Source of the DNA: an uncultured Flavobacteriaceae bacterium
Lineage (GTDB): Bacteria > Bacteroidota > Bacteroidia > Flavobacteriales > Flavobacteriaceae
Length of the DNA: 64,000 nt
Direction of reading: 5' to 3'
NCBI GenBank assembly: GCA_947497245.1
Contig: CANMFO010000001.1
Span: 558,001 to 622,000 of the forward strand
Shown here: piece after piece, positions 17,841-33,656 of the stretch
How positions within the stretch are numbered: position 1 is the stretch's first letter
Layout: each line of letters starts with the position of its first letter
Made by a program: the position numbers and the translations under genes
The notes under the pieces: generated by a model
The model's database searches: none
What the model was told of the DNA's origin: nothing
What the model saw: the letters and a program-made list of their open reading frames with translations, nothing else

Positions 17841-18740
17841 ATGCTGACAAAGGTTTTCGGAAGTGCTGTTTTTGGAGTGGAGGCCACTACGATCACGGTT
17901 GAGGTTAATGTGGATATTGGTGTCGGGTACCATTTAGTGGGTCTGCCCGATAATGCCATAAAGGAGAGCAATTACCGTATCGCGGCGGCGCTCTTGAACA
18001 ATGGGTACCGGATTCCGGGCAAAAAGATCACCCTGAACCTGGCCCCTGCGGACCTTCGGAAAGAAGGATCGGCCTATGACCTTACCCTGGCCGTGGGAAT
18101 CCTGACCGCTTCGGGACAGATACAATCCCAAAATTTGGAAAACTATGTCATTATGGGCGAACTTTCCCTTGATGGTGGCCTTCAACCGATCAAAGGCGCC
18201 CTGCCCATTGCCATCAAAGCCCAGGAAGAGGGGTTTAAGGGGTTCATACTTCCCAAGCAGAATGCAAAGGAAGCTGCAATCGTGGCCGGACTTGAGGTAT
18301 ACGGGGTGGAGAACATTGCCGAGGTCATTGCCTTTTTTGATAAGGACGAACCCATGCCCCGGACCGTAGTGGATATCCAAGAGGAGTTTTACAAAAACCT
18401 GGATTTACCCGAGTTCGACTTTTCAGACGTCAGGGGGCAGGAAGGCATCAAAAGGTGCATGGAAATCGCTGCGGCCGGAGGGCACAATATCATCCTAATC
18501 GGCCCCCCGGGATCGGGGAAGACGATGTTGGCCAAGCGACTGCCTTCCATCCTGCCCCCAATGACCTTGAACGAGGCCCTGGAGACCACCAAGATCCACA
18601 GCGTGGTGGGCAAGATCAAGAACACGGGCCTCATGAACCAAAGGCCGTTTAGAAGTCCGCACCACACCATCAGTGATGTGGCCCTGGTCGGCGGGGGCAC
18701 CTACCCGCAACCCGGGGAGATTTCAATAAGTATAATTTAG
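17841..18740 (+). pseudogene. comM: comM/yifB 5' portion (Mg chelatase-like AAA+), truncated by element insertion
   Basis: MLTKVFGSAVFGVEATTITVEVNVDIGVGYHLVGLPDNAIKES and Walker A GPPGSGKTMLAKRLPS; homology stops at GEIS then five element-encoded codons and a stop. Remainder of the gene is at 29984-30637. Confidence 0.93.
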
Positions 18741-18744
18741 GGTA
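18723..18744 (+). other. attL: TCA crossover bases plus element arm ATTTAGGGTA (18735-18744)
   Basis: gagatt|TCA|ataagtataATTTAGGGTA; the arm is the reverse complement of TACCCTAAAT at the right end. Confidence 0.75.
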
Positions 18745-18786
18745 AGTCTTTGTTTTCTGCCTATATTTGTTCGTAAACACTTAATT

Positions 18787-20595
18787 ATGAGCAAGCGATG
18801 TGCAATTTATCTGCGAGTTTCAACCGATATTCAAGACTATAAACGCCAAAAAAATGAATTGAAAACATTCGCAAAAGCATACGGCTACACTTTAAATGAT
18901 TCTGATATCTATAAAGATAAATTAAGTGGTTTTAAAAAGATAGATGAAAGGGAAGGTTTATCCGAATTGATGGGAAAGGTATGGAACAATGAATTCGATG
19001 TCGTGCTAACATGGGAGATATCTAGGTTATCACGCGACCAGATTGAAATTTTACAATTAGCAAAAGAATTCCAGAAGCATAAAGTAAATCTATATTTCAA
19101 GCAAAATAGTTTATGGTTGTTGAATAAAAATCTTGAAGTATCCAGTAGTGTCAGATTGATAATGTCTGTACTAAGTTTCACGGCAGAAGATGAAGCGGAA
19201 AGAATCAAGGAAAGACTGCTTTCAGGGAAACGTCAGTATGTACGAGAAGGTAAATACAACGGTGGTAAAATCACGTTTGGCTATACCATTAAGAAGTTTG
19301 GAAAAACTGATGAACCATCAGATAAGAAATTTATTATCGATACCAAGAAAATAGATGGGTTAGATGTATCCAAATCTGATATTGTACGGGAGGTATTCGA
19401 TTTGTACGAAAGTGGATTGACGGCATCAAAGGTAGCCTTGCATTGTAAATCCAAAGGATATCCAAAACACGTAACATCACAACATACCATAGCTAGATTA
19501 CTTCGAAATACAAGTTACATCGGATACAAGGAAACTAAACTAGGTACAAGGCCAGTACCATCGATAATAGAAGAAGCACAATTTGTAACGGTTGGCAAGT
19601 TATTGGATACCAACAAGACGAAAGCAGATAAGGGAAGGAAACACACCTATTTGCTCCGTAAAGTGCTTAAATGTACTTACTGCGATAAATTGTACATAGG
19701 TAAACAAACTGATGATACATACCAATGTTCCTTGAACCATCAAACCAACAAGTTCCTTCACGGCACAAAATGTAAAGGAAGTAACATATCAGTAAGTAAT
19801 GTAGATGGTGTAATATGGGAACGTGTAAAAGATGTATGGGTACACAAGAAAATGCATGGCTTCGATAATATCTTCGCAGTTTCAAATGTTGAAAAGGAAG
19901 AAGCTGAAAAGGAAATCAAACGATATGAAAATCTTTTAGTCCCATTAGATGACCAACGAAAAAGAATCAATAGGATTTTTGAAACTGGCGGTTATAAGGA
20001 ATCCGAATATGATGATAAGTTGGGCAAGGTTAAAAGGGATGAACATAATATCAAATCAAAGATTAAAGAACTACAAGTAAAGATACGTTCCAATGAAAAG
20101 GCTAGGAAAAGAGCTAATTCAGTATTCAGTAGGCAACAGGATATCGAATCAATCACTAACAGAAAAGAAATGAAATCAAGGATTTCAAGTCTAATCAAGC
20201 ATATCACATTTAGTAAAGTAGGATTATTCAAAACAATATTGTTTGTACGATATCAGGATGGGAAAACTGAAACTATACTTTATAATTCTGTATCAAAAAA
20301 GGGAAACAAATTCAAATTGATTGATTCAAAATTCGTATCCTATTATGATGAAGAAAAATGTTTCTATTTCTTGAAAGAAGAACATCATAAAGTGGCAAGT
20401 GCCAAGAACTTGATTGAATTCGCCAAAGAGAAATTAGCCACCAATCGTTTCGAATTACCCAATGCTTCCAATTCCATCAAATATGATTTCGATGAACTTC
20501 TAAAATTGGATGATATACCTAATATTTTGAGTACACACGAATACTCAAAGATTACCTATTTCAAGGATTTGAACAGAAAACGCTTCTCTAGATAA
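18787..20595 (+). CDS. Large serine recombinase (site-specific integrase)
   Basis: 602 aa; N-terminal resolvase domain (CAIYLRVSTDIQDYKRQKNELK, LTWEISRLSRDQ), recombinase domain, Cys-containing zinc-ribbon-like region (CTYCDKLYIGKQTDDTYQC), coiled coil. Confidence 0.95.
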   Translation: MSKRCAIYLRVSTDIQDYKRQKNELKTFAKAYGYTLNDSDIYKDKLSGFKKIDEREGLSELMGKVWNNEFDVVLTWEISRLSRDQIEILQLAKEFQKHKVNLYFKQNSLWLLNKNLEVSSSVRLIMSVLSFTAEDEAERIKERLLSGKRQYVREGKYNGGKITFGYTIKKFGKTDEPSDKKFIIDTKKIDGLDVSKSDIVREVFDLYESGLTASKVALHCKSKGYPKHVTSQHTIARLLRNTSYIGYKETKLGTRPVPSIIEEAQFVTVGKLLDTNKTKADKGRKHTYLLRKVLKCTYCDKLYIGKQTDDTYQCSLNHQTNKFLHGTKCKGSNISVSNVDGVIWERVKDVWVHKKMHGFDNIFAVSNVEKEEAEKEIKRYENLLVPLDDQRKRINRIFETGGYKESEYDDKLGKVKRDEHNIKSKIKELQVKIRSNEKARKRANSVFSRQQDIESITNRKEMKSRISSLIKHITFSKVGLFKTILFVRYQDGKTETILYNSVSKKGNKFKLIDSKFVSYYDEEKCFYFLKEEHHKVASAKNLIEFAKEKLATNRFELPNASNSIKYDFDELLKLDDIPNILSTHEYSKITYFKDLNRKRFSR

Positions 20596-20771
20596 AGAAG
20601 TTCATAGATTTAATTAACCAACCCCAACATTTTCACCGCAGACTAACAAACAAAAACCTCCATATTTCAGTATATGAAGGTATTTAACGGTGGTTAACTA
20701 CGGTATTAGTGTATCAAAATAAGGCAAAAACACCTATAAAGGCGTTCATTTGTCACTGCTGGAAATATTTT

Positions 20772-21089
20772 TCAGTACTGGTAGAAATCAGTAATCATTT
20801 TAATTAAATCTTCTTTAGTCACTATTACAGCATTGCCAAACATGTCCATTTGGGTAAATATTCCATCATTTCTCAAAATGCCCAAAAAGTCCTCGGTGAA
20901 AGTGGCATGCACATCATATTCATCAGTACCCTCAAAGGATACATGGGGTTTCGATTTGGTGTATCTCAATCGTTCCTTTTCTGTTACTGATATTTTACCA
21001 TTTTCCAATGGCGTATACTCAAATCCATATGGGTGGATTTCTAATTGTTTTACTTTTTCCCCACCTTTTCTTTTTACTATTTTTTTCAT
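20772..21089 (-). CDS. Hypothetical protein of the element
   Basis: 105-aa ORF, no overlapping competitor of similar quality; no family recognised. Confidence 0.55.
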   Translation of the reverse strand: MKKIVKRKGGEKVKQLEIHPYGFEYTPLENGKISVTEKERLRYTKSKPHVSFEGTDEYDVHATFTEDFLGILRNDGIFTQMDMFGNAVIVTKEDLIKMITDFYQY

Positions 21090-21108
21090 AATTTTTAAAT
21101 TTTAGTTA

Positions 21109-21366
21109 TTAATCTCTATATTTTTCATAAGGTGTTTCCTTGTAAAGAGTGTTGAGTATTTCATCTAGTCTGTATACCAAGGGTGAAAGTCTATAGTATT
21201 CATCATGTAAGTCTTTACAAAGAAAATTCTGTATTTCTTCATCTACGTTTTCAGATTCGTTCTTTCTCATGTATTTGAGTTCTTCATAAATTAAATCAGG
21301 TAATATTTTCATCAATTGATTATCGATTTTCTGTGCAATTTCAATTTTTGTCATTTTATGTTTCAT
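21109..21366 (-). CDS. Hypothetical protein of the element
   Basis: 85-aa ORF directly upstream of and co-directional with the 105-aa ORF. Confidence 0.55.
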   Translation of the reverse strand: MKHKMTKIEIAQKIDNQLMKILPDLIYEELKYMRKNESENVDEEIQNFLCKDLHDEYYRLSPLVYRLDEILNTLYKETPYEKYRD

Positions 21367-21570
21367 TTAAAGTTTATAATAAGCACGCATCAGACGCACA
21401 GAAGTACCGGACTATCCAGTACTTCATCTATACATATCGTCATATGATCCAAACGCATAAAAAAATCAGCTGAAACATGAAATTCATCATATTTTAGCTG
21501 ATTAAATAGTCATTGAGTACCGTATTTACGGGGCTTTAAATGAATATGTTAAAATTATGTTAATAATATA

Positions 21571-21711
21571 TTATACTTCCTTTCCCTTTTTCAAATCAAC
21601 ATACTCTGTTAATGAAACAAACGGTTCTTTCTTGATTCCCTCTATGAACTCCTCACCCCTTTTCAGCTCATAGATTTCTCTGAGCTCCTTCTTTCTTTTT
21701 TTGGTTAACAT
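21571..21711 (-). CDS. 46-aa basic hypothetical protein coupled to the resolvase gene
   Basis: Translated by hand: MLTKKRKKELREIYELKRGEEFIEGIKKEPFVSLTEYVDLKKGKEV; overlaps the resolvase 3' end by 7 nt (ATGTTAA). Not in the supplied ORF track. Confidence 0.45.
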   Translation of the reverse strand: MLTKKRKKELREIYELKRGEEFIEGIKKEPFVSLTEYVDLKKGKEV

Positions 21712-22331
21712 GCAACTTGATTTAATTGTTTGTTGAGGTTGATTACCTTGTATATTGTGGAGAAACTACAATCTCTCATTTGGGATATTTCCCTAGCACT
21801 ATATCCATTATTTAAATCCTTTAAAATTGCCTTTGATTTGGGTTTATTGAGAAACTTCTCAGGTGTATCCTTAGTGCCAATCTTTCTTCCACTATATTTC
21901 CATGGTTCATTTATTTTCGTTCTTTCAATCCCCTCTGACCTCCTCATATCTATCATAGATTTCTCAAAGGATGACATGGAGGACAGGAGTTCCAAAAGCA
22001 ACTGGCTGAATGGGTCGGTTTTTCCATTCTCATCCATATTCTGAATGTTTGGATTTCTACAAATTACCCTTACACCTAAATCAGTTAACTCTTTCCATAC
22101 AGATAACACCATTAGAGTATTACGTCCTAATCTGTCAATCGAGTGTACATGTAATTCTTTCAACTGATTTTTATTAATGAGTTCTTTTATCTGTTTTCCT
22201 CTCGGTCTTTCCCATAAATCTACAGCACCCGATATTTTATCTGATAAAACGTAGTCAAAATCTTTTGTGTTTACTCTTTGTCTCTGGTCGGATTGTTCTT
22301 GGGTAGATACCCTTGTATAGAATATTTTCAT
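21705..22331 (-). CDS. Small serine recombinase (resolvase/invertase family)
   Basis: 208 aa; MKIFYTRVSTQEQSDQRQ, LHVHSIDRLGRNTLMVLSVW, C-terminal HTH (GYSAREISQMRDCSFSTIYKVI). Confidence 0.92.
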   Translation of the reverse strand: MKIFYTRVSTQEQSDQRQRVNTKDFDYVLSDKISGAVDLWERPRGKQIKELINKNQLKELHVHSIDRLGRNTLMVLSVWKELTDLGVRVICRNPNIQNMDENGKTDPFSQLLLELLSSMSSFEKSMIDMRRSEGIERTKINEPWKYSGRKIGTKDTPEKFLNKPKSKAILKDLNNGYSAREISQMRDCSFSTIYKVINLNKQLNQVAC

Positions 22332-22448
22332 TGTTACTATTTTAGGTTATCTTTATTAATACCCTAATATAGTAACTTTTATTGAGACGCACAAGCGTTT
22401 ATAGTAGCACTTTTACTACTATTTGCGGTGTTCCCTAAAATAGTAACA
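22332..22448. promoter_or_regulatory. Candidate res site/operator of the small serine recombinase
   Basis: TGTTACTATTTTAGG (22332-22346) and its perfect reverse complement CCTAAAATAGTAACA (22434-22448); imperfect copy CCTAATATAGTAAC (22363-22376); ATAGTAG...CTACTAT (22401-22422). Confidence 0.6.
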
Positions 22449-22776
22449 TTATCCTGTCAATAATGTTTTAATGAATTCCCAACTAGGGACATGTTACTCG
22501 TAACTAACCAATTAATTTTCGATTCTGACCTTGTAATATCTGTTTTAATAGGGACACTGGTTTTTTTATCGCTAGAACTTTTCAATCTGACATGTTGTTT
22601 ATGATTAATCCCATGGATAATATTTTTTCGAAAATTGAAATGAAACACACTAACTGTACAGCAAATAATTACTCTTAACCATTATCTTAAAAGTAGGATT
22701 TTTCGTAATTTAACATCTTTAAGAAAAATAGTTCCTGTAACTATAATTAATTGTTTACCAACACTGTGAAGAACCT

Positions 22777-24012
22777 ATGCCAGACTATAAACCTCTAGAA
22801 GAAAATATAACAACGGATAATGCTATCAAAACCGTCTTTCACTATTGTGATGAAAGTGGTAGGTTAGTTCATAAAGCAAAAGAATATTTCAAAAAAGAGG
22901 ATACTTATATTTTTTACCCATATTCGGTTGCTACTGCGGATGGAAGTGTGACTCCAAAAAAGATTAAAACCATTGAATTAAAAGGCTGGAAAAAAGTTTC
23001 AGATATACCAAAGGATTTCAAAACTATCGGTAAATATGGTTTAAAATCACTGCGAATCAGACAATTTTTTCAATATCTATATCCAAAATTTAAGGAGTTA
23101 GAGAAAATAACAGTAGGAATAAATATCCAGAATAGATTCTCGACTAAATCAATAACTATAAATTGGTCACATTTAGCACCAATCTTGAAAAAAATCGCAG
23201 ATGAAAAAAGATGGTATGACAGAACTAGGAAGTTAATGATTCATAATCAAGTCTCTAATATCACAACTAAACTTGCTAAAGAGAAAACTTACTTAAATTC
23301 TGGACAACTAGATGCATTTTTAAAGAAATTTGACTCTTTCGAAAAAGTCACAAAAGCTGATATTGATTCTTTATCAAATGTTCTTGAAACTGCACCACCT
23401 AGTAAAATTTCAGTTACATCAAACTTCATTAAAACCCGTGATAAAATAAATAAGGTTTTTATAGAAGACATAATTAAGAATTTTGAAAGGTTAATGTCAT
23501 CCAAAACGGATAACGAAAAGAATTGGCAAAAGTTCTTTGGTCAAAATACGTGGATTCTAAATCACCTATTTCCTTTCGAGGTAATCTTACGAGAACAAGA
23601 AGCGTATGTTGGAGGAAAGACTTTAGGAAACAAAGATGGGCGAGTTGTGGATTTTCTATTTCAAAACGGTTTTCAGGATAATTTTGCACTTCTAGAAATA
23701 AAAACACATAAAAAAGATTTACTTAAAAGAACTCCATATCGCAAACCTGATGCCTTTGCATATTCCGATGATTTGTCTGGAGGAATTAGTCAATGTTTAG
23801 ACCAAAAAGATGTTTTCTTGAGAGATTTTGGAGGTAAAAAGCGTATCATTAATCCAAAAACTATATTAGTAATTGGATTAAAAACGAATCTCGATGAACA
23901 TCAGAATAAATGCTTTGAATTATTGCGGTCGAATCAGAAAAGTGTTGATATTATCACATTCGATGAACTTCTTGCTAAACTAAAAGGATTATTAGAAGTT
24001 GTAGCGGAATAA
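22777..24012 (+). CDS. Shedu-like (DUF4263) nuclease-domain protein
   Basis: 411 aa; C-terminal NWQKFFGQNTWILNHLFPFEVILREQEAYVGGKTLGNKDGRVVDFLFQNGFQDNFALLEIKTH...GGISQCLDQKDVFLR, a D...ExK...Q PD-(D/E)XK pattern typical of SduA. Confidence 0.8.
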   Translation: MPDYKPLEENITTDNAIKTVFHYCDESGRLVHKAKEYFKKEDTYIFYPYSVATADGSVTPKKIKTIELKGWKKVSDIPKDFKTIGKYGLKSLRIRQFFQYLYPKFKELEKITVGINIQNRFSTKSITINWSHLAPILKKIADEKRWYDRTRKLMIHNQVSNITTKLAKEKTYLNSGQLDAFLKKFDSFEKVTKADIDSLSNVLETAPPSKISVTSNFIKTRDKINKVFIEDIIKNFERLMSSKTDNEKNWQKFFGQNTWILNHLFPFEVILREQEAYVGGKTLGNKDGRVVDFLFQNGFQDNFALLEIKTHKKDLLKRTPYRKPDAFAYSDDLSGGISQCLDQKDVFLRDFGGKKRIINPKTILVIGLKTNLDEHQNKCFELLRSNQKSVDIITFDELLAKLKGLLEVVAE

Positions 24013-24063
24013 TACGGGTCACATCTTAAGTATTGCGTATAATTGAAAATTATCAATTAAGAA

Positions 24064-25104
24064 ATGAATATCGATTTGTTAAATACAATAATTAGTGCAG
24101 GGGTTGGTGCAGGAGTTGCATTATTGACTTTATATATCGATGGTGTTAGAAAAAGAAATGATCGCAAGCGAGAGGAATATAATATATATAAAACTTATTC
24201 CAAACCAATTATTGCTGCGGCAGAATCATTGGCATGGAGATTACGTGAAGTATTAATGTTTAATGGAGCATATCTCCTTCCTGATGCACCAATAAATGGA
24301 TTCTTCAAATATAAGTTTGACAGTACAGTTTATAGATTGTGTAATCTGATTGGTTGGATAAGAGCGGTTCAAAAAGAGTATTCATACATTGAAGGAATTA
24401 AAGATTCACAAAATCCAAAAATTAGAAAATCAATTAATTTGTTTCAAAAAGTATTAGCAGACGGATCTCATGTCGAGGTATCAATTTTAGAAGAACTATG
24501 TAAACTCTATGGTCTTGAAGAAAAACAGATATCTGATAACATAAGACAAAAACTCGGAGTAGAGATTGAAAGAATTGTTTTTGGTTTCATACCAGATCAG
24601 GTCAAAAAAAATGTATCATATCTGACCTCAGGACAAAAAACTAAAATGATTACCTCAATTATGGATTTAATTTCAGAGCATACGGAACAACAGAAAATAG
24701 ATGCAACCGAAATTGAAGCTAAAGTAGATATCGCTGTTGACGAAATTGCTAGAGAGTTCTGTTGGATTTATAGAGATTGGCAAAATGCAATCGGTGATGA
24801 AATGATTCTAAAGTTAGAAGATGGAAAGCGTTATTATGACGTTATAGGATTCTCTGAATTTATGAAAACGAGAAACAATAACGAATGGATTCAGAAGGTC
24901 GATAATTTATTCGCAAACTTAGATGTTTCAATAGACAATAGATTTGATACTAGAGTAAGTCAGGTCAAAAGAATATATGTATCGTTAATAGATTTAATCA
25001 CAGTACTTAATGAAACTATTGAAGACGAAGAAGGAATCGCTAAATCAGGTTTGGTGAAATTGAATGAGTTACAAACAACTTTGAATACCGAAATGAAACA
25101 ATGA
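24064..25104 (+). CDS. Membrane-anchored hypothetical protein
   Basis: 346 aa, single N-terminal TM (LLNTIISAGVGAGVALLTLYIDGVRKR), long helical cytosolic part; 51 nt after the Shedu-like gene. Confidence 0.75.
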   Translation: MNIDLLNTIISAGVGAGVALLTLYIDGVRKRNDRKREEYNIYKTYSKPIIAAAESLAWRLREVLMFNGAYLLPDAPINGFFKYKFDSTVYRLCNLIGWIRAVQKEYSYIEGIKDSQNPKIRKSINLFQKVLADGSHVEVSILEELCKLYGLEEKQISDNIRQKLGVEIERIVFGFIPDQVKKNVSYLTSGQKTKMITSIMDLISEHTEQQKIDATEIEAKVDIAVDEIAREFCWIYRDWQNAIGDEMILKLEDGKRYYDVIGFSEFMKTRNNNEWIQKVDNLFANLDVSIDNRFDTRVSQVKRIYVSLIDLITVLNETIEDEEGIAKSGLVKLNELQTTLNTEMKQ

Positions 25105-25150
25105 CAAATCTATGAATAGCGGTAAACAATACGAACAAAACTAAATTATA

Positions 25151-27064
25151 ATGAGTAAAAAAGAATATATACAAGGCTCTTTATTTGAGGAAGATTACTT
25201 AATTAGAACTTTAGGCAATCTTGGAAATTCTCCAGAAGTTGCATTAACTGAACTTGTTGCGAATGCTTGGGACGCTGGGGCAACAACTGTGGAAATATTT
25301 ATTCCAGAAGAAAAAGGGCAAGACCTTATCATTGTTGACAATGGAACTGGACTTACAAAAAAGGAGTTCTATTCAAGGTGGATGAAATTAGGTTACAATA
25401 GATTAAAGCATCAAGGTAAAAAAGTAACTTTTCCAAAAGGGGTTGATTTACAAAGACATGCTTATGGTCGAAATGGAATCGGCAGACATGGAATGTTATG
25501 TTTTAATAACGAATATTTAGTTGTCACAAATAGTGGAGGAAAAAAATCAACATTCAGTATTACTACAAAAAGTGAAAAAGAACCGTTCATAATAAAAGAA
25601 CAAAGTTTTGATGACTCAAATATTACAGGAACACAGCTTGTAGTAAAAGTTCAAAAGAATTTACCCAAACCAGAGCACATTTTAGAAGTTATTTCAGCTC
25701 GTTTTTTGCACGACCCGAAATTCAAAGTTTCAATTAATAGGAATACCATTCAACTAGAAGAACATAAAGGTCTCGTTTTTTCGGAAACTGTTGATGTCCA
25801 TGGAATAGAATTAAAAATCCACTTAATTGACTCTAAAAAGGCAAGAAAATCGACAGTTTATCAAGGAATAGCTTTTTGGCAAAGTGGCAGGTTGGTTGGA
25901 GAACCCTCTTGGATTGTTGGTCATAATATGGTTTTAGATGGTAGAACCAAGCAGGCAAAAAGATATTCAGTAGTTGTCCAAACTAATGATTTAGCAGAAT
26001 ATATTAGAGAAGATTGGTCAGGTTTTAAAAATATAAAAGATTTAAACCCTGTTTTTGATAAGGTTGATGAAGTAGTCCAAAATATGTTTTCAGAAATTGC
26101 GAAAGAAAATGTAGAAGAATCTACAAAACAAATAAAACAAGAATTTAAGAGAGAATACAATAATTTAAGTCCTCTGGGGAAATATGAGTTTGATGAAGCA
26201 ATTGAGAACATTGCCATTAATAATCCAACCGCTAGACAGGATGCTGTTAATTTAGCAGTGGAAACTGTAATCAATCTAGAAAAAACAAGAAGTGGTAGTG
26301 AGTTACTTCAAAAATTATCTCTCTTTACGGAAGAAGATATTGATGGCTTAAATAGCCTTTTGGACAAGTGGACAATAAAGGATGCTTTAACTGTTCTTGA
26401 TGAAATAGACAAGCGGATTTCCGTTATAGAAGCAATACGGAAATTATCCAATGATGATTCGGTTGATGAATTACATGTTTTACATCCGTTAATCGCAAGT
26501 GCAAGATGGATTTTTGGTCCTGAATTCGATTCTCCGGAATATGCCTCAAATAATCAACTTCAAACAACAGTTGAAAAAGTATTCAAGAAAACAATCGACA
26601 AATCATTATTCAATAATCATAGGAAAAGACCAGATATTGTAGTTGGAGCAAATTCAACATTTTCTATTACTGGAACTGCCGACTATGATACTGAAAATGG
26701 ATTAACTAATATTAATAAAGTACTAATTATAGAGTTAAAAAGAGGTGGCTTTAAACTTGGCCGTGAGGAAAGAAATCAAGCTGTAGGCTATGTAGAAGAT
26801 TTTATGAATTGTGGAACTGTAATAGGTTCACCATATATTAGTGCATTTGTTGTTGGGGAATCTTTCAGTGAAAAAATACAACCAATTTCCACTATTGAAA
26901 ATGAACATAAAGTTGAGAAAGGAAAAATTCAAATTTGTTTGTTTTCTCAAATAGTCGATTCGTCTGAAAGAAGATTGTTTAATTTGAGAAAAAGGTTGAA
27001 TAATAGATACGAAAACTTCACTGGAAAAGAACTCTTTCAAAAGCAGAATAAACTAGCAATCTAA
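25151..27064 (+). CDS. GHKL (Bergerat-fold) ATPase with C-terminal PD-(D/E)XK-like domain
   Basis: 637 aa; ELVANAWDAGATTVEIFI, IVDNGTGLTKKEF, GRNGIGRHGMLCF; C-terminus KRPDIVVG...VLIIELKRGGFKLGREERNQAVGYVEDF. 46 nt after the preceding gene. Confidence 0.82.
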   Translation: MSKKEYIQGSLFEEDYLIRTLGNLGNSPEVALTELVANAWDAGATTVEIFIPEEKGQDLIIVDNGTGLTKKEFYSRWMKLGYNRLKHQGKKVTFPKGVDLQRHAYGRNGIGRHGMLCFNNEYLVVTNSGGKKSTFSITTKSEKEPFIIKEQSFDDSNITGTQLVVKVQKNLPKPEHILEVISARFLHDPKFKVSINRNTIQLEEHKGLVFSETVDVHGIELKIHLIDSKKARKSTVYQGIAFWQSGRLVGEPSWIVGHNMVLDGRTKQAKRYSVVVQTNDLAEYIREDWSGFKNIKDLNPVFDKVDEVVQNMFSEIAKENVEESTKQIKQEFKREYNNLSPLGKYEFDEAIENIAINNPTARQDAVNLAVETVINLEKTRSGSELLQKLSLFTEEDIDGLNSLLDKWTIKDALTVLDEIDKRISVIEAIRKLSNDDSVDELHVLHPLIASARWIFGPEFDSPEYASNNQLQTTVEKVFKKTIDKSLFNNHRKRPDIVVGANSTFSITGTADYDTENGLTNINKVLIIELKRGGFKLGREERNQAVGYVEDFMNCGTVIGSPYISAFVVGESFSEKIQPISTIENEHKVEKGKIQICLFSQIVDSSERRLFNLRKRLNNRYENFTGKELFQKQNKLAI

Positions 27065-27590
27065 AAATCTAGCTACACAATAGCGTATACTATAATCAAT
27101 GGGACATAATTGTGATACCTGCTATTGTCTCCTGTTTGTTTATGGGTTCATGTAGGGTGACAATCAATATTTATCATCGTATTTCTAATTTTTTTTAATC
27201 TTTTACATTTTTTCTTTCCGTTTTTCAAAATCCATATATGTATTATAGTAGTGAGGTTCAACCCTAGTTGGTGGATTGGATTGTTTGAACTACATGAGGG
27301 GTATCGGTGAGTTTGAAGTTTGTAACCATACCAGTAATAAAATTTACAGAAATGTAAGAACCAAAGAACCGTAGGAGCTTTTAGTTGAGATACTATAGAA
27401 CTGGAACGATTATCCGAACCAAGGGGAGCGGATAGGTGGGAATATGTTGAATAACCACCCTAGATATACCCTCATTGGAGAGTGTTCATAGATTGTTTAA
27501 GGGGTGGGAATTTATCATTTCTTCCCTTAAACTCTCTATTCAACCCCTTTTGGAAAATATAATAGCTATAGCAAAAAAGTAGAGAAGAAA

Positions 27591-27725
27591 ATGAAAATTA
27601 AAGTAGGTAAAAAAACATTGAAACAGCTAGAAGGCTCAACCGTAGATGATATCAGGTTTTTAGATATCCATTCTAGCAAAGAATATGATTTTGATGGATA
27701 CATGAACCTAATCAAAGAAGAATAA
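27591..27725 (+). CDS. 44-aa hypothetical protein
   Basis: MKIKVGKKTLKQLEGSTVDDIRFLDIHSSKEYDFDGYMNLIKEE; ends 1 nt before the next start codon. Below the ORF-track cut-off. Confidence 0.45.
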   Translation: MKIKVGKKTLKQLEGSTVDDIRFLDIHSSKEYDFDGYMNLIKEE

Positions 27726-27726
27726 A

Positions 27727-28257
27727 ATGAAAGAAATATTTGAATCATTCAACTATCAGGCATTGCTTGAAGTTATTGAAGAACAACAAGGAAAGACCTT
27801 CATGATGGAGAACGCTGACTTATTGTACCTATGGTACTGCGTACAGAGAAAGCAAGTAAAGGAAAACAGGGAACTGATGATAAAGTATCTAAGGGAGAAT
27901 CGAATCCTAGAGAACCCAGCTGATATAGTGAGAACAGTTAATCGATACTTTAAATTTAGAAATCTATTACCCGATTTAAATTACGTTCAGCAACAAAGGC
28001 TGAACAGGAGCAATCAATACCTGAACCCAGTAGTTCCCTTTCAGCCAATTGGAAACAAGATGTTGGGTATCATAGAACAAAACAAAGAATCCTATTCGGT
28101 TGTTGATATTTCAGAAGGCAAGGAAAATATCGTAGCGGTGCTATTCAAAAAAGGCGGTATCAGTTGGAGGAATAACAACCTTCACCCATTCGAAATGAAG
28201 TGGGTACTCGAAAAAAACAAAAAGGATTTAAAGAAAAAGATAGGAGTGTTAGAATGA
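27727..28257 (+). CDS. Hypothetical protein of the element
   Basis: 176 aa; co-directional compact cluster. Confidence 0.65.
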   Translation: MKEIFESFNYQALLEVIEEQQGKTFMMENADLLYLWYCVQRKQVKENRELMIKYLRENRILENPADIVRTVNRYFKFRNLLPDLNYVQQQRLNRSNQYLNPVVPFQPIGNKMLGIIEQNKESYSVVDISEGKENIVAVLFKKGGISWRNNNLHPFEMKWVLEKNKKDLKKKIGVLE

Positions 28258-28613
28258 GATTACCATCAAAGAAGCTATTCTGTGAAAATACCTCTCCATT
28301 GATTAAAGCACTTATCCTTAAAAAGAGAGCAGGAATAACATTGTCCGAACGTGAGGAAAAGCAACTTGAAAAGGAAGCATTAAAGGAAACAGTTTCAATG
28401 ACTATGCCGTCAAACTATCACAATAGACTTGCATCGCTACCTCAACCCATACAAGAGCCGTATTCGGATGATTTGGATGAAACCGACACATTGAGTAAAG
28501 AGGAACTGGAAAACCTCGTAAAAAGGATGGTATTGGATATGCTAGACAATGAAGAAGAATATGAGGATGAAGATTGGAACGAGATATTGGAAAACCTAAC
28601 CAAGAATCCCTAA
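28254..28613 (+). CDS. Hypothetical protein of the element
   Basis: Starts at ATGA overlap with preceding gene; MRLPSKKLFCENTSPLIKALILKKRAGITLSEREEKQLEKEAL. Confidence 0.65.
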   Translation: MRLPSKKLFCENTSPLIKALILKKRAGITLSEREEKQLEKEALKETVSMTMPSNYHNRLASLPQPIQEPYSDDLDETDTLSKEELENLVKRMVLDMLDNEEEYEDEDWNEILENLTKNP

Positions 28614-28647
28614 AACATACAGCACTAACCTATAAAAGCAAACATAA

Positions 28648-28908
28648 ATGAAAGAATTACAACTAGAAAAAACGTTGGAATTGGAAGCGATGGGAATCGA
28701 GACATCATTGCTCAATTCGAAATTAATTTTTACCAGAGATGAGGTGATCAAGATTCTAGCCTGTGCTAATTCAACATTGAACAATTTTGAAAAAAGAGGA
28801 TGGATTAAGTCCAGCAGATTCAAAAACAAGAAATTCTACAGTAGAGCTTGTATATTGAAATGCATCAATATACAGTCTCCTTTGAAAGCGAAGACCAATT
28901 CAGATTGA
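28648..28908 (+). CDS. Small HTH (MerR/excisionase-like) protein
   Basis: 86 aa; FTRDEVIKILACANSTLNNFEKRGWIKSSRFKNKKFYSRACILKCI resembles HTH_17/MerR-type winged helix. Confidence 0.55.
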   Translation: MKELQLEKTLELEAMGIETSLLNSKLIFTRDEVIKILACANSTLNNFEKRGWIKSSRFKNKKFYSRACILKCINIQSPLKAKTNSD

Positions 28909-29060
28909 AGAATAGGGAACAATATATAGTAACCGTTAAAAAATGATACTGTATCAAATTATGAAAACATTTAATTCTGATATATATTATTACCAACAAA
29001 TATCTCAACTACTGTGTTATCGATTAAAATAACACCCTCGTGTTTACAAACGATTAAAAA

Positions 29061-29089
29061 AGCCACAGATACATTCTGTGGTTTTTTTA
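29061..29089 (+). terminator. Rho-independent terminator in the element
   Basis: AG-CCACAG-atacatt-CTGTGG-TTTTTTT. Confidence 0.75.
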
Positions 29090-29324
29090 TACCTTGAACT
29101 GAAATGTTTCTTACTGGATATCAATTCAAGTTTCTAATATGATTCTAAAGAGTATATTCAAGTATAATAATGATTACTTCAATGGGATGCTCTTTGACAG
29201 GACAACCCTTTCAGACACCTAGGAGTGTGTAAAATTCTTTTTAATCGTAACTTTATAAAGTTTCGTAATAAGGTGAAACATAGATATTCAATCTGTAAAA
29301 AAGGCTAATTAAACAAAGAAACAT

Positions 29325-29909
29325 ATGGCAAAAATAGAAGGTGAGGAAAAAGAGCCGGAAAAATTTCATGAAATCTATCGAAATAAGAAAAATAACATTG
29401 AAGATTATAATTTAGAGGAAATTGTTGGAGCTGTAGTTGATAGACAGAATCAGATGGAGGAAAAAATCAGCACTTATATTGCGAATTATATAAATCCATC
29501 GGATAGAGCATTTTTCACAAGTATCATAATGAATAGTTCTATTACGAGCTTTGGGGCCAAGGTTAAAATACTTTCAAATATGGGTGTTGATAAGAAACTG
29601 ATTGAAAAATTGAGAATGTTCTTATCCATCAGAAACGGATTTGGCCATTCAGTACTGGGTAACCAAATGAAAATGACAATGACTACTAAAAAGGGAAAGG
29701 CTACATCAGTGAACACTGAAATTCAAGGGTCTAAAATAATGGTCATGAACTCTAGTGGGAAATTGGTATCAAAAAATACAATTGAATATTTTAAAAAATA
29801 TATTGAACTTCATAATGAGATAAACAACGAACTAAAAAAGGAAATTGGAAGGATTAAGAATGAGAATATTGTTGAAACCCTTACTAGGAAGAAACCTAAA
29901 ATAGAATAA
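29325..29909 (+). CDS. Hypothetical protein with RX4H (HEPN-like) motif
   Basis: 194 aa helical; KLRMFLSIRNGFGHSVLG contains R-N-x-x-x-H; stop 48 nt from the attR arm. Confidence 0.6.
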   Translation: MAKIEGEEKEPEKFHEIYRNKKNNIEDYNLEEIVGAVVDRQNQMEEKISTYIANYINPSDRAFFTSIIMNSSITSFGAKVKILSNMGVDKKLIEKLRMFLSIRNGFGHSVLGNQMKMTMTTKKGKATSVNTEIQGSKIMVMNSSGKLVSKNTIEYFKKYIELHNEINNELKKEIGRIKNENIVETLTRKKPKIE

Positions 29910-29957
29910 CCGAGTTCATGAACTCACGGACATTTAGTGAATACTAAATGTAGTACC

Positions 29958-29986
29958 TACCCTAAATATGAATTAATGTAATATCA
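29958..29986 (+). other. attR: element arm TACCCTAAAT (29958-29967) plus TCA (29984-29986)
   Basis: TACCCTAAATatgaattaatgtaataTCA|ctttcccacaac; comM reading frame resumes at TCA CTT TCC CAC AAC GGG GTG CTG. Confidence 0.75.
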
Positions 29987-33176: not shown

Positions 33177-33285
33177 GTGAAGCAGTTGATGGGTGGTCGC
33201 TTTGCCAAGTTAGTGAATTATTGAATAGATAATTGAATTGCGCGAAAACCACGTTTTAAAAACCACCGCATTGGAAAGAGCAGCA

Positions 33286-33656
33286 GATGTGGCCCTGGTC
33301 GGTGGAGGCACCTACCCACAAGCTGGGGAAATATCCCTTTTGCACAACGGCGTTTTGTTCTTGGATGAACTCCCGGAATTCAAAAGAGGGGTACTCGAAG
33401 TGATGCGTCAACCTTTGGAAGATCGTGAAGTGACCATATCCAGAGCCCGATTTACGGTGACCTATCCGAGTAGTTTTATGTTGGTGACCAGCATGAACCC
33501 AAGCCAGAGTGGCTATTTCAACGACCCGGTGCGCCCGTAACCTTGTCCCCAACGGAAATGCAGCGCTATCTGGGAAACGCACCGGCCGTTAGGGGCGACT
33601 ATATCGCGGAGGCGATTCAGTACCGGAGTTTGGATAAAGAGGTGTGGTTGGGATAG
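33286..33656 (+). pseudogene. Second, decayed copy of the comM 3' region
   Basis: [81 protein letters not shown], then frameshift, then jump to APAVRGDYIAEAIQYRSLDKEVWLG-stop. Confidence 0.92.

What the first reader, a model, noticed from the sequence alone, without database searches (positions are those of the whole stretch)
22777..27064. Candidate defence system: Shedu-like nuclease + membrane protein + GHKL-ATPase/nuclease
Three co-directional genes with 51- and 46-nt gaps sit alone as cargo between the resolvase and the accessory ORFs. The first and third each end in a PD-(D/E)XK-like motif set (VVDFLF...LLEIKTH...ISQCLDQ; RPDIVVG...LIIELKRGG...RNQAVGY). The middle protein carries an N-terminal TM. 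Shedu is described as a single-gene system; a fixed trio with a Bergerat-fold ATPase and a membrane protein could be a new multi-gene variant or an independent system.
Basis: partly seen in the sequence, partly recalled or inferred. Interest (0 to 1): 0.8.

Follow-up and report, generated by a model that had tools for sequence, protein, structure and literature searches.

The report
Two single-gene Shedu-family nucleases, one island
A small mobile island inserted in a bacterial gene carries two phage-defence nucleases that elsewhere stand alone, with an orphan membrane protein between them; the three look like separate cargo genes rather than one new three-part machine, so this is an interesting but fairly ordinary defence island.

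Summary
In detail: three co-directional genes (SduA 22777-24012, membrane-anchored helical protein 24064-25104, GHKL ATPase/nuclease 25151-27064; gaps 51 and 46 nt) inside an 11,261-bp low-GC element that splits comM. The first gene is a bona fide Shedu protein (Pfam SduA_C above cut-off). The third matches the paraMORC3 architecture described in 2008. A paraMORC3-type protein, VcSduA of V. cholerae, was shown in 2025 to defend alone as a Shedu type I-D system. Nuclease residues are invariant in 88 relatives and the ATPase motifs nearly so. The trio is not conserved. Among 79 genome loci of the closest paraMORC3 relatives (up to 84% identity), none has the middle gene, and one has an adjacent SduA (a second case is on Rhizobium plasmids; order reversed in both). 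The closest SduA relative (71%) lies in an unrelated defence context. The middle gene has one distant homologue, on a Cupriavidus plasmid without either partner. The best reading is two independent single-gene Shedu-family nucleases plus an orphan gene, co-carried on a serine-recombinase island. Cooperation between the two nucleases is not excluded but has little support.

The parts
18724..29984 (.). Mobile element, 11,261 bp, about 32% GC, inserted in comM/yifB; boundaries defined by restoring the comM frame (a 1-3 nt core ambiguity remains)
   Evidence: Joining the two flanks gives one 511-aa ComM reading frame; GC profile; end sequences ATTTAGGGTA / TACCCTAAAT inverted near the two ends
18787..20595 (+). 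Large serine recombinase (602 aa), probable integrase of the element
   Evidence: Pfam Resolvase 3.6e-26, Recombinase 3.5e-07; PHROG integrase 1.7e-75
21705..22331 (-). Small serine resolvase/invertase (208 aa)
   Evidence: Pfam Resolvase 5.9e-21
22333..22450 (.). Inverted/direct repeats just upstream of the resolvase gene, a probable res site (inference)
   Evidence: 18-nt inverted pair 22333-22350/22359-22376; 18-nt direct repeat 22362/22433
22777..24012 (+). SduA, Shedu immune nuclease (411 aa); C-terminal PD-(D/E)XK domain at residues about 245-400, own N-terminal domain
24064..25104 (+). Orphan protein (346 aa), N-terminal transmembrane helix and helical cytoplasmic part; block W-x-YRDWQ-x-AIGD-x-MI shared with one Cupriavidus plasmid protein
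   Evidence: AlphaFold model uninformative (pLDDT 36.6)
25151..27064 (+). paraMORC3/VcSduA-like GHKL ATPase-nuclease (637 aa): GHKL + S5-like (1-280), helical middle (295-430), Shedu-like PD-(D/E)XK (440-605)
27727..29909 (+). Accessory ORFs of the element (176, 137, 86 and 194 aa), no convincing family

Best explanation
The three genes are cargo of an 11.3-kb serine-recombinase island integrated in comM. Two of them are independent single-gene members of the Shedu nuclease superfamily. SduA (22777-24012) is a PD-(D/E)XK nuclease gated by its own N-terminal sensor domain. The paraMORC3/VcSduA-like protein (25151-27064) is expected to dimerise through its GHKL-S5 ATPase, clamp DNA or a phage-made structure on ATP binding, and then license its C-terminal Shedu-type nuclease to cut invading DNA. 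The middle membrane-anchored helical protein is an unrelated orphan, perhaps a separate abortive-infection-type gene. Shown here: family membership, intact active sites, lack of co-conservation, the mobile context. Inferred: anti-phage activity, the ATP-gated clamp, the independent action of the genes, and any role for the middle protein.
For: SduA_C above the Pfam cut-off and PADLOC SduA, with solved Shedu proteins 8ti8 and 8ps4 as sequence relatives. GHKL + C-terminal E-D-ExK is the paraMORC3 architecture, reported as often standalone 'without any conserved neighborhood associations' (PMC2292703). VcSduA of the same architecture defends alone and needs both ATPase E27 and nuclease K557 (PMC12137116). 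Full-length relatives of the window's GHKL protein have their own C-terminus matching SduA_C over the cut-off; profile-profile alignment of its residues 425-605 with SduA 232-402 gives E 9.7e-5; PADLOC SduA matches 11 of 41 family members. No fixed partner: 0 of 79 loci with the middle gene, 1 of 79 with SduA adjacent; neighbours are varied (HsdS, RhuM, AAA, MTase and others). The SduA relatives' neighbours are also varied: type I RM, AAA_15/OLD-TOPRIM plus helicase, or none.
Against: In this island the three are close-packed on one strand (gaps 51 and 46 nt) with no terminator-like site found between them, so they could be co-transcribed. paraMORC3 next to SduA recurs in two other diverged lineages, Rhizobium plasmids (11-nt gap) and Pseudomonas sp. 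LS-2 (50-nt gap), which is more than nothing. The direct Pfam scan of the window's GHKL protein does not reach SduA_C.
Confidence: 0.8

Rival explanations
1. A true multi-gene Shedu variant: SduA and the GHKL-nuclease act together, with the membrane protein as anchor or effector, for example the ATPase loads or licenses SduA on phage DNA at the membrane.
For: Tight co-directional packing; paraMORC3-SduA adjacency in two other lineages.
Against: Middle gene absent from every other paraMORC3 or SduA neighbourhood examined and from 50 of 50 genomes with close paraMORC3 relatives. The 71-84% identical relatives of each nuclease occur without the other next door. In both other adjacent cases the gene order is reversed. 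Each nuclease carries a complete sensor/ATPase plus catalytic domain.
Confidence: 0.08
2. A two-gene partnership of SduA and paraMORC3 without the middle gene: an occasional functional pair of two Shedu-fold nucleases giving layered or heteromeric immunity.
For: Three independent adjacencies (window, Rhizobium sp. B21/90, Pseudomonas sp. LS-2), with diverged sequences (GHKL 30%, SduA 28% identical between the latter two).
Against: Only 1 of 79 genome loci and one Rhizobium plasmid lineage, against a background in which SduA occurs in 5 of 50 of these genomes and both genes cluster with other defence genes. Other SduAs examined have no paraMORC3 beside them: seven plasmid loci and two genome loci.
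Confidence: 0.1
3. The GHKL protein is a restriction enzyme of the BbrUII/HgiDII type that lost its methyltransferase.
For: NCBIfam BbrUII/HgiDII model matches at 1.1e-32, 113.5 bits, mainly the ATPase part; one relative, L004, has a C5 methyltransferase ending 3 nt before it.
Against: Far below that model's cut-off of 550 bits; none of the element genes scanned matched a DNA methyltransferase, so unprotected host sites would be cut by an unregulated enzyme; most close relatives also lack an adjacent C5 methyltransferase.
Confidence: 0.07

Closest known systems
Shedu SduA (DUF4263/PF14082; solved entries 8ti8, 8ps4)
   Same: SduA_C domain above cut-off; E-WQ, D, ExK and Q catalytic set; separate N-terminal domain
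   Different: Sequence match to the solved proteins is confined to the C-terminal domain (230-408); the N-terminal region has no named family
VcSduA / Shedu type I-D (PMC12137116) and paraMORC3 (PMC2292703)
   Same: N-terminal GHKL ATPase, S5-like region, helical middle, C-terminal PD-(D/E)XK; single gene; both active sites intact
   Different: C-terminal domain too diverged for a direct Pfam SduA_C hit; linked to it by relatives and by profile comparison. The VcSduA sequence itself was not fetched, so identity to it was not measured
BbrUII/HgiDII-family restriction enzymes
   Same: Shared GHKL ATPase module
   Different: Score far under the family cut-off; no methyltransferase found in the element

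Membership tests
Shedu (SduA), gene 22777-24012 | C-terminal DUF4263/SduA_C domain | tested here: met
   PF14082 79.9 bits, cut-off 27; PADLOC SduA 2.8e-56
Shedu (SduA), gene 22777-24012 | Intact PD-(D/E)XK catalytic residues | tested here: met
   E247, E307, K309 and Q339 identical in 12 of 12, D292 in 9 of 12
Shedu (SduA), gene 22777-24012 | Anti-phage activity as a single gene | not testable with these tools
   needs an experiment; single-protein nature is published for the family (PMC12409362)
paraMORC3, gene 25151-27064 | N-terminal GHKL ATPase with all nucleotide-binding motifs | tested here: met
   PF13589 1.8e-17; motif residues invariant or nearly so in 88 relatives
paraMORC3, gene 25151-27064 | S5-like domain after the GHKL domain | tested here: met
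   AlphaFold model pLDDT 79; Foldseek hits to Hsp90/TRAP1, MORC3 and MORC2 ATPase modules, low TM-scores because only part is shared
paraMORC3, gene 25151-27064 | C-terminal restriction-endonuclease fold with E-D-ExK | tested here: met
   E440, D495, E528, K530 and Q543 conserved in the 41-sequence alignment; 88-sequence counts
Shedu type I-D (VcSduA-like), gene 25151-27064 | C-terminal domain is DUF4263 | tested here: inconclusive
   No direct Pfam hit; relatives' C-termini do hit over the cut-off; hhalign to SduA E 9.7e-5, probability 58%; PADLOC SduA in 11 of 41 members
New multi-gene Shedu variant (trio) | Co-conservation of the three genes in other genomes | tested here: not met
   0 of 79 loci with gene 2, 1 of 79 with gene 1 adjacent; 0 of 50 genomes with gene 2; SduA relatives without partners
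BbrUII/HgiDII restriction enzyme | Reaches the family cut-off | tested here: not met
   113.5 bits against 550
BbrUII/HgiDII restriction enzyme | Cognate DNA methyltransferase next to it | tested here: not met
   no methyltransferase family among the element ORFs scanned

The most novel reading that the evidence does not exclude
SduA and a GHKL-Shedu (paraMORC3) nuclease form a cooperating pair of two Shedu-fold nucleases, here extended by a membrane-anchored third protein, so that ATP-gated DNA clamping by one licenses the other at the membrane.
Probability: 0.1. Interest if true: 0.65.

Novelty: new member of a known kind. Interest (0 to 1): 0.27.

Why it matters
It puts a classic SduA and a GHKL-type (paraMORC3/VcSduA-like) Shedu nuclease side by side on one precisely bounded mobile island, a natural test of whether the two Shedu types are additive or redundant. 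It also documents comM as a landing site for a serine-recombinase defence island in this lineage and flags one truly orphan membrane protein (24064-25104) as a candidate for a separate defence gene. If the genes prove independent, the finding adds two ordinary members to known families.

Tried and rejected
Trio as a conserved system: rejected by neighbourhood analysis. SduA-paraMORC3 as a general pair: tested with the SduA type found next to paraMORC3 in Rhizobium; seven plasmid loci and two genome loci of that type lack paraMORC3. Restriction-modification membership of the GHKL protein: rejected on score and absence of a methyltransferase. Structured RNA or retron-like element in the 27064-27727 non-coding gap: no Rfam match, folding z-score -1.1. 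Structure of the middle protein: single-sequence AlphaFold useless (pLDDT 36.6). Viral-contig scans for the middle protein failed four times for machine reasons, so its rarity in viruses is untested. Element-wide relatives: the large recombinase has no close copy in 243 other genomes of the order.

Full report
WHAT IS THERE. GC at third positions is 21-24% against 61-66% in the flanking host genes, so the block is foreign.

THE ELEMENT. The comM/yifB gene is split: its 5' part ends at about 18725 and its 3' part resumes at about 29985. Joining the flanks gives one uninterrupted 511-aa ComM frame, which sets the element at 11,261 bp with a 1-3 nt core ambiguity. Just inside the ends lie inverted ATTTAGGGTA / TACCCTAAAT motifs. 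The element carries a 602-aa large serine recombinase, a 208-aa small resolvase preceded by an inverted-repeat cluster that looks like a res site (inference), the three genes, and four small ORFs without convincing family. No close copy of the recombinase was found in 243 other genomes of the order.

GENE 1 is a Shedu protein: SduA_C at 79.9 bits against a cut-off of 27, PADLOC SduA at 2.8e-56, phmmer matches to solved Shedu proteins confined to the C-terminal nuclease domain. E247, W250, Q251, E307, K309 and Q339 are identical in all twelve SduA proteins aligned, and D292 in nine.

GENE 3 has a GHKL ATPase (PF13589, 1.8e-17), a beta-rich S5-like region and a helical middle (AlphaFold model with 41 sequences, mean pLDDT 79; Foldseek top hits Hsp90/TRAP1 and MORC ATPases), and a C-terminal PD-(D/E)XK domain whose R493, D495, E528, K530, Q543 and Y547 are identical in 88 of 88 relatives. 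This is the paraMORC3 architecture of Iyer et al. 2008 (PMC2292703), who noted that a subset of paraMORC3 genes, mainly in proteobacteria and Bacteroidetes, stand alone without conserved neighbours. In 2025 VcSduA, of the same architecture, was shown to protect alone and to need both the ATPase and the nuclease; the authors file it as Shedu type I-D (PMC12137116). The window protein itself does not reach Pfam SduA_C directly. Three full-length relatives carry C-termini that do, a profile-profile comparison with SduA gives E 9.7e-5 at probability 58% over the nuclease domain, including the conserved glutamate and tryptophan helix at its start, and PADLOC SduA matches 11 of 41 family members. 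I therefore call the nuclease Shedu-like with moderate confidence. The ATPase part also resembles BbrUII/HgiDII restriction enzymes, but at 113.5 bits against a cut-off of 550 and with no methyltransferase found in the element.

GENE 2 has one N-terminal hydrophobic segment (about 5-27) and is otherwise predicted helical. No Pfam, NCBIfam, PADLOC, PHROG or PDB relative passes. The only relative found is a hypothetical protein on a Cupriavidus malaysiensis plasmid (27% identity over 90%, E 4e-32), sharing a W-x-YRDWQ-x-AIGD-x-MI block; its neighbours are neither SduA nor paraMORC3. It was not found in 395 other genomes of the phylum, 243 others of the order or 50 genomes with close paraMORC3 relatives.

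IS THE TRIO A UNIT? A scan of 85,462 species genomes with the paraMORC3 alignment gave 383 relatives; the best 80 became 79 loci, up to 84% identical. Some loci end close to the gene, so an upstream or downstream neighbour could be missed there. None encodes a gene 2 relative, and only Pseudomonas sp. LS-2 has SduA next door; a Rhizobium plasmid lineage is a second case, both in the order GHKL then SduA, opposite to the window. SduA occurs in 5 of 50 of these genomes. The neighbours of paraMORC3 are varied, with type I RM specificity subunits the commonest at 4 of 61. The closest SduA relative (71%, Flavobacterium MAG, L118) sits beside a DUF6577 gene and an MmeI-type RM enzyme; a 44% one (L105) and the plasmid relatives have type I RM, AAA_15/OLD-TOPRIM plus helicase, or nothing defence-like beside them. 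Each nuclease thus travels alone or as a guest in other defence loci.

CONCLUSION. The most economical reading is a mobile defence island carrying two independent single-gene Shedu-family nucleases and an orphan membrane protein. Mechanism, inferred from the families: SduA cuts phage DNA when its own N-terminal domain senses it; the GHKL protein closes as an ATP-bound dimer clamp and licenses its own nuclease. Cooperation, suggested by adjacency in three diverged lineages, is kept open at about 10%.

Noticed in passing
window 33238-33655: A decayed second copy of part of comM, with an internal deletion, including the sequence that corresponds to the element's insertion point, lies about 2.6 kb downstream of the end of the 3' half of comM; a 751-aa gene on the minus strand lies between.
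   Followed up: partly
window 18724-29984: comM/yifB as integration site of a large serine recombinase element; the host comM is disrupted, which may affect natural transformation if this host is competent.
   Followed up: partly
L126:3471-4922, L130:3462-4859, L127:3501-4880: SduA proteins sit as an extra gene inside type I restriction-modification operons, after hsdS (before hsdR in two of the three).
   Followed up: no
L085, L090, L092, L098, genes directly upstream of the paraMORC3 relative: paraMORC3 genes follow an HsdS-like gene in four loci, a similar slot to that used by SduA elsewhere; both may be interchangeable guests of type I RM operons.
   Followed up: partly
L004:352-3153: A paraMORC3 relative follows a C5 DNA methyltransferase by 3 nt and its reading frame is interrupted by a TGA; possible link between paraMORC3 and HgiDII-type restriction systems.
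   Followed up: no
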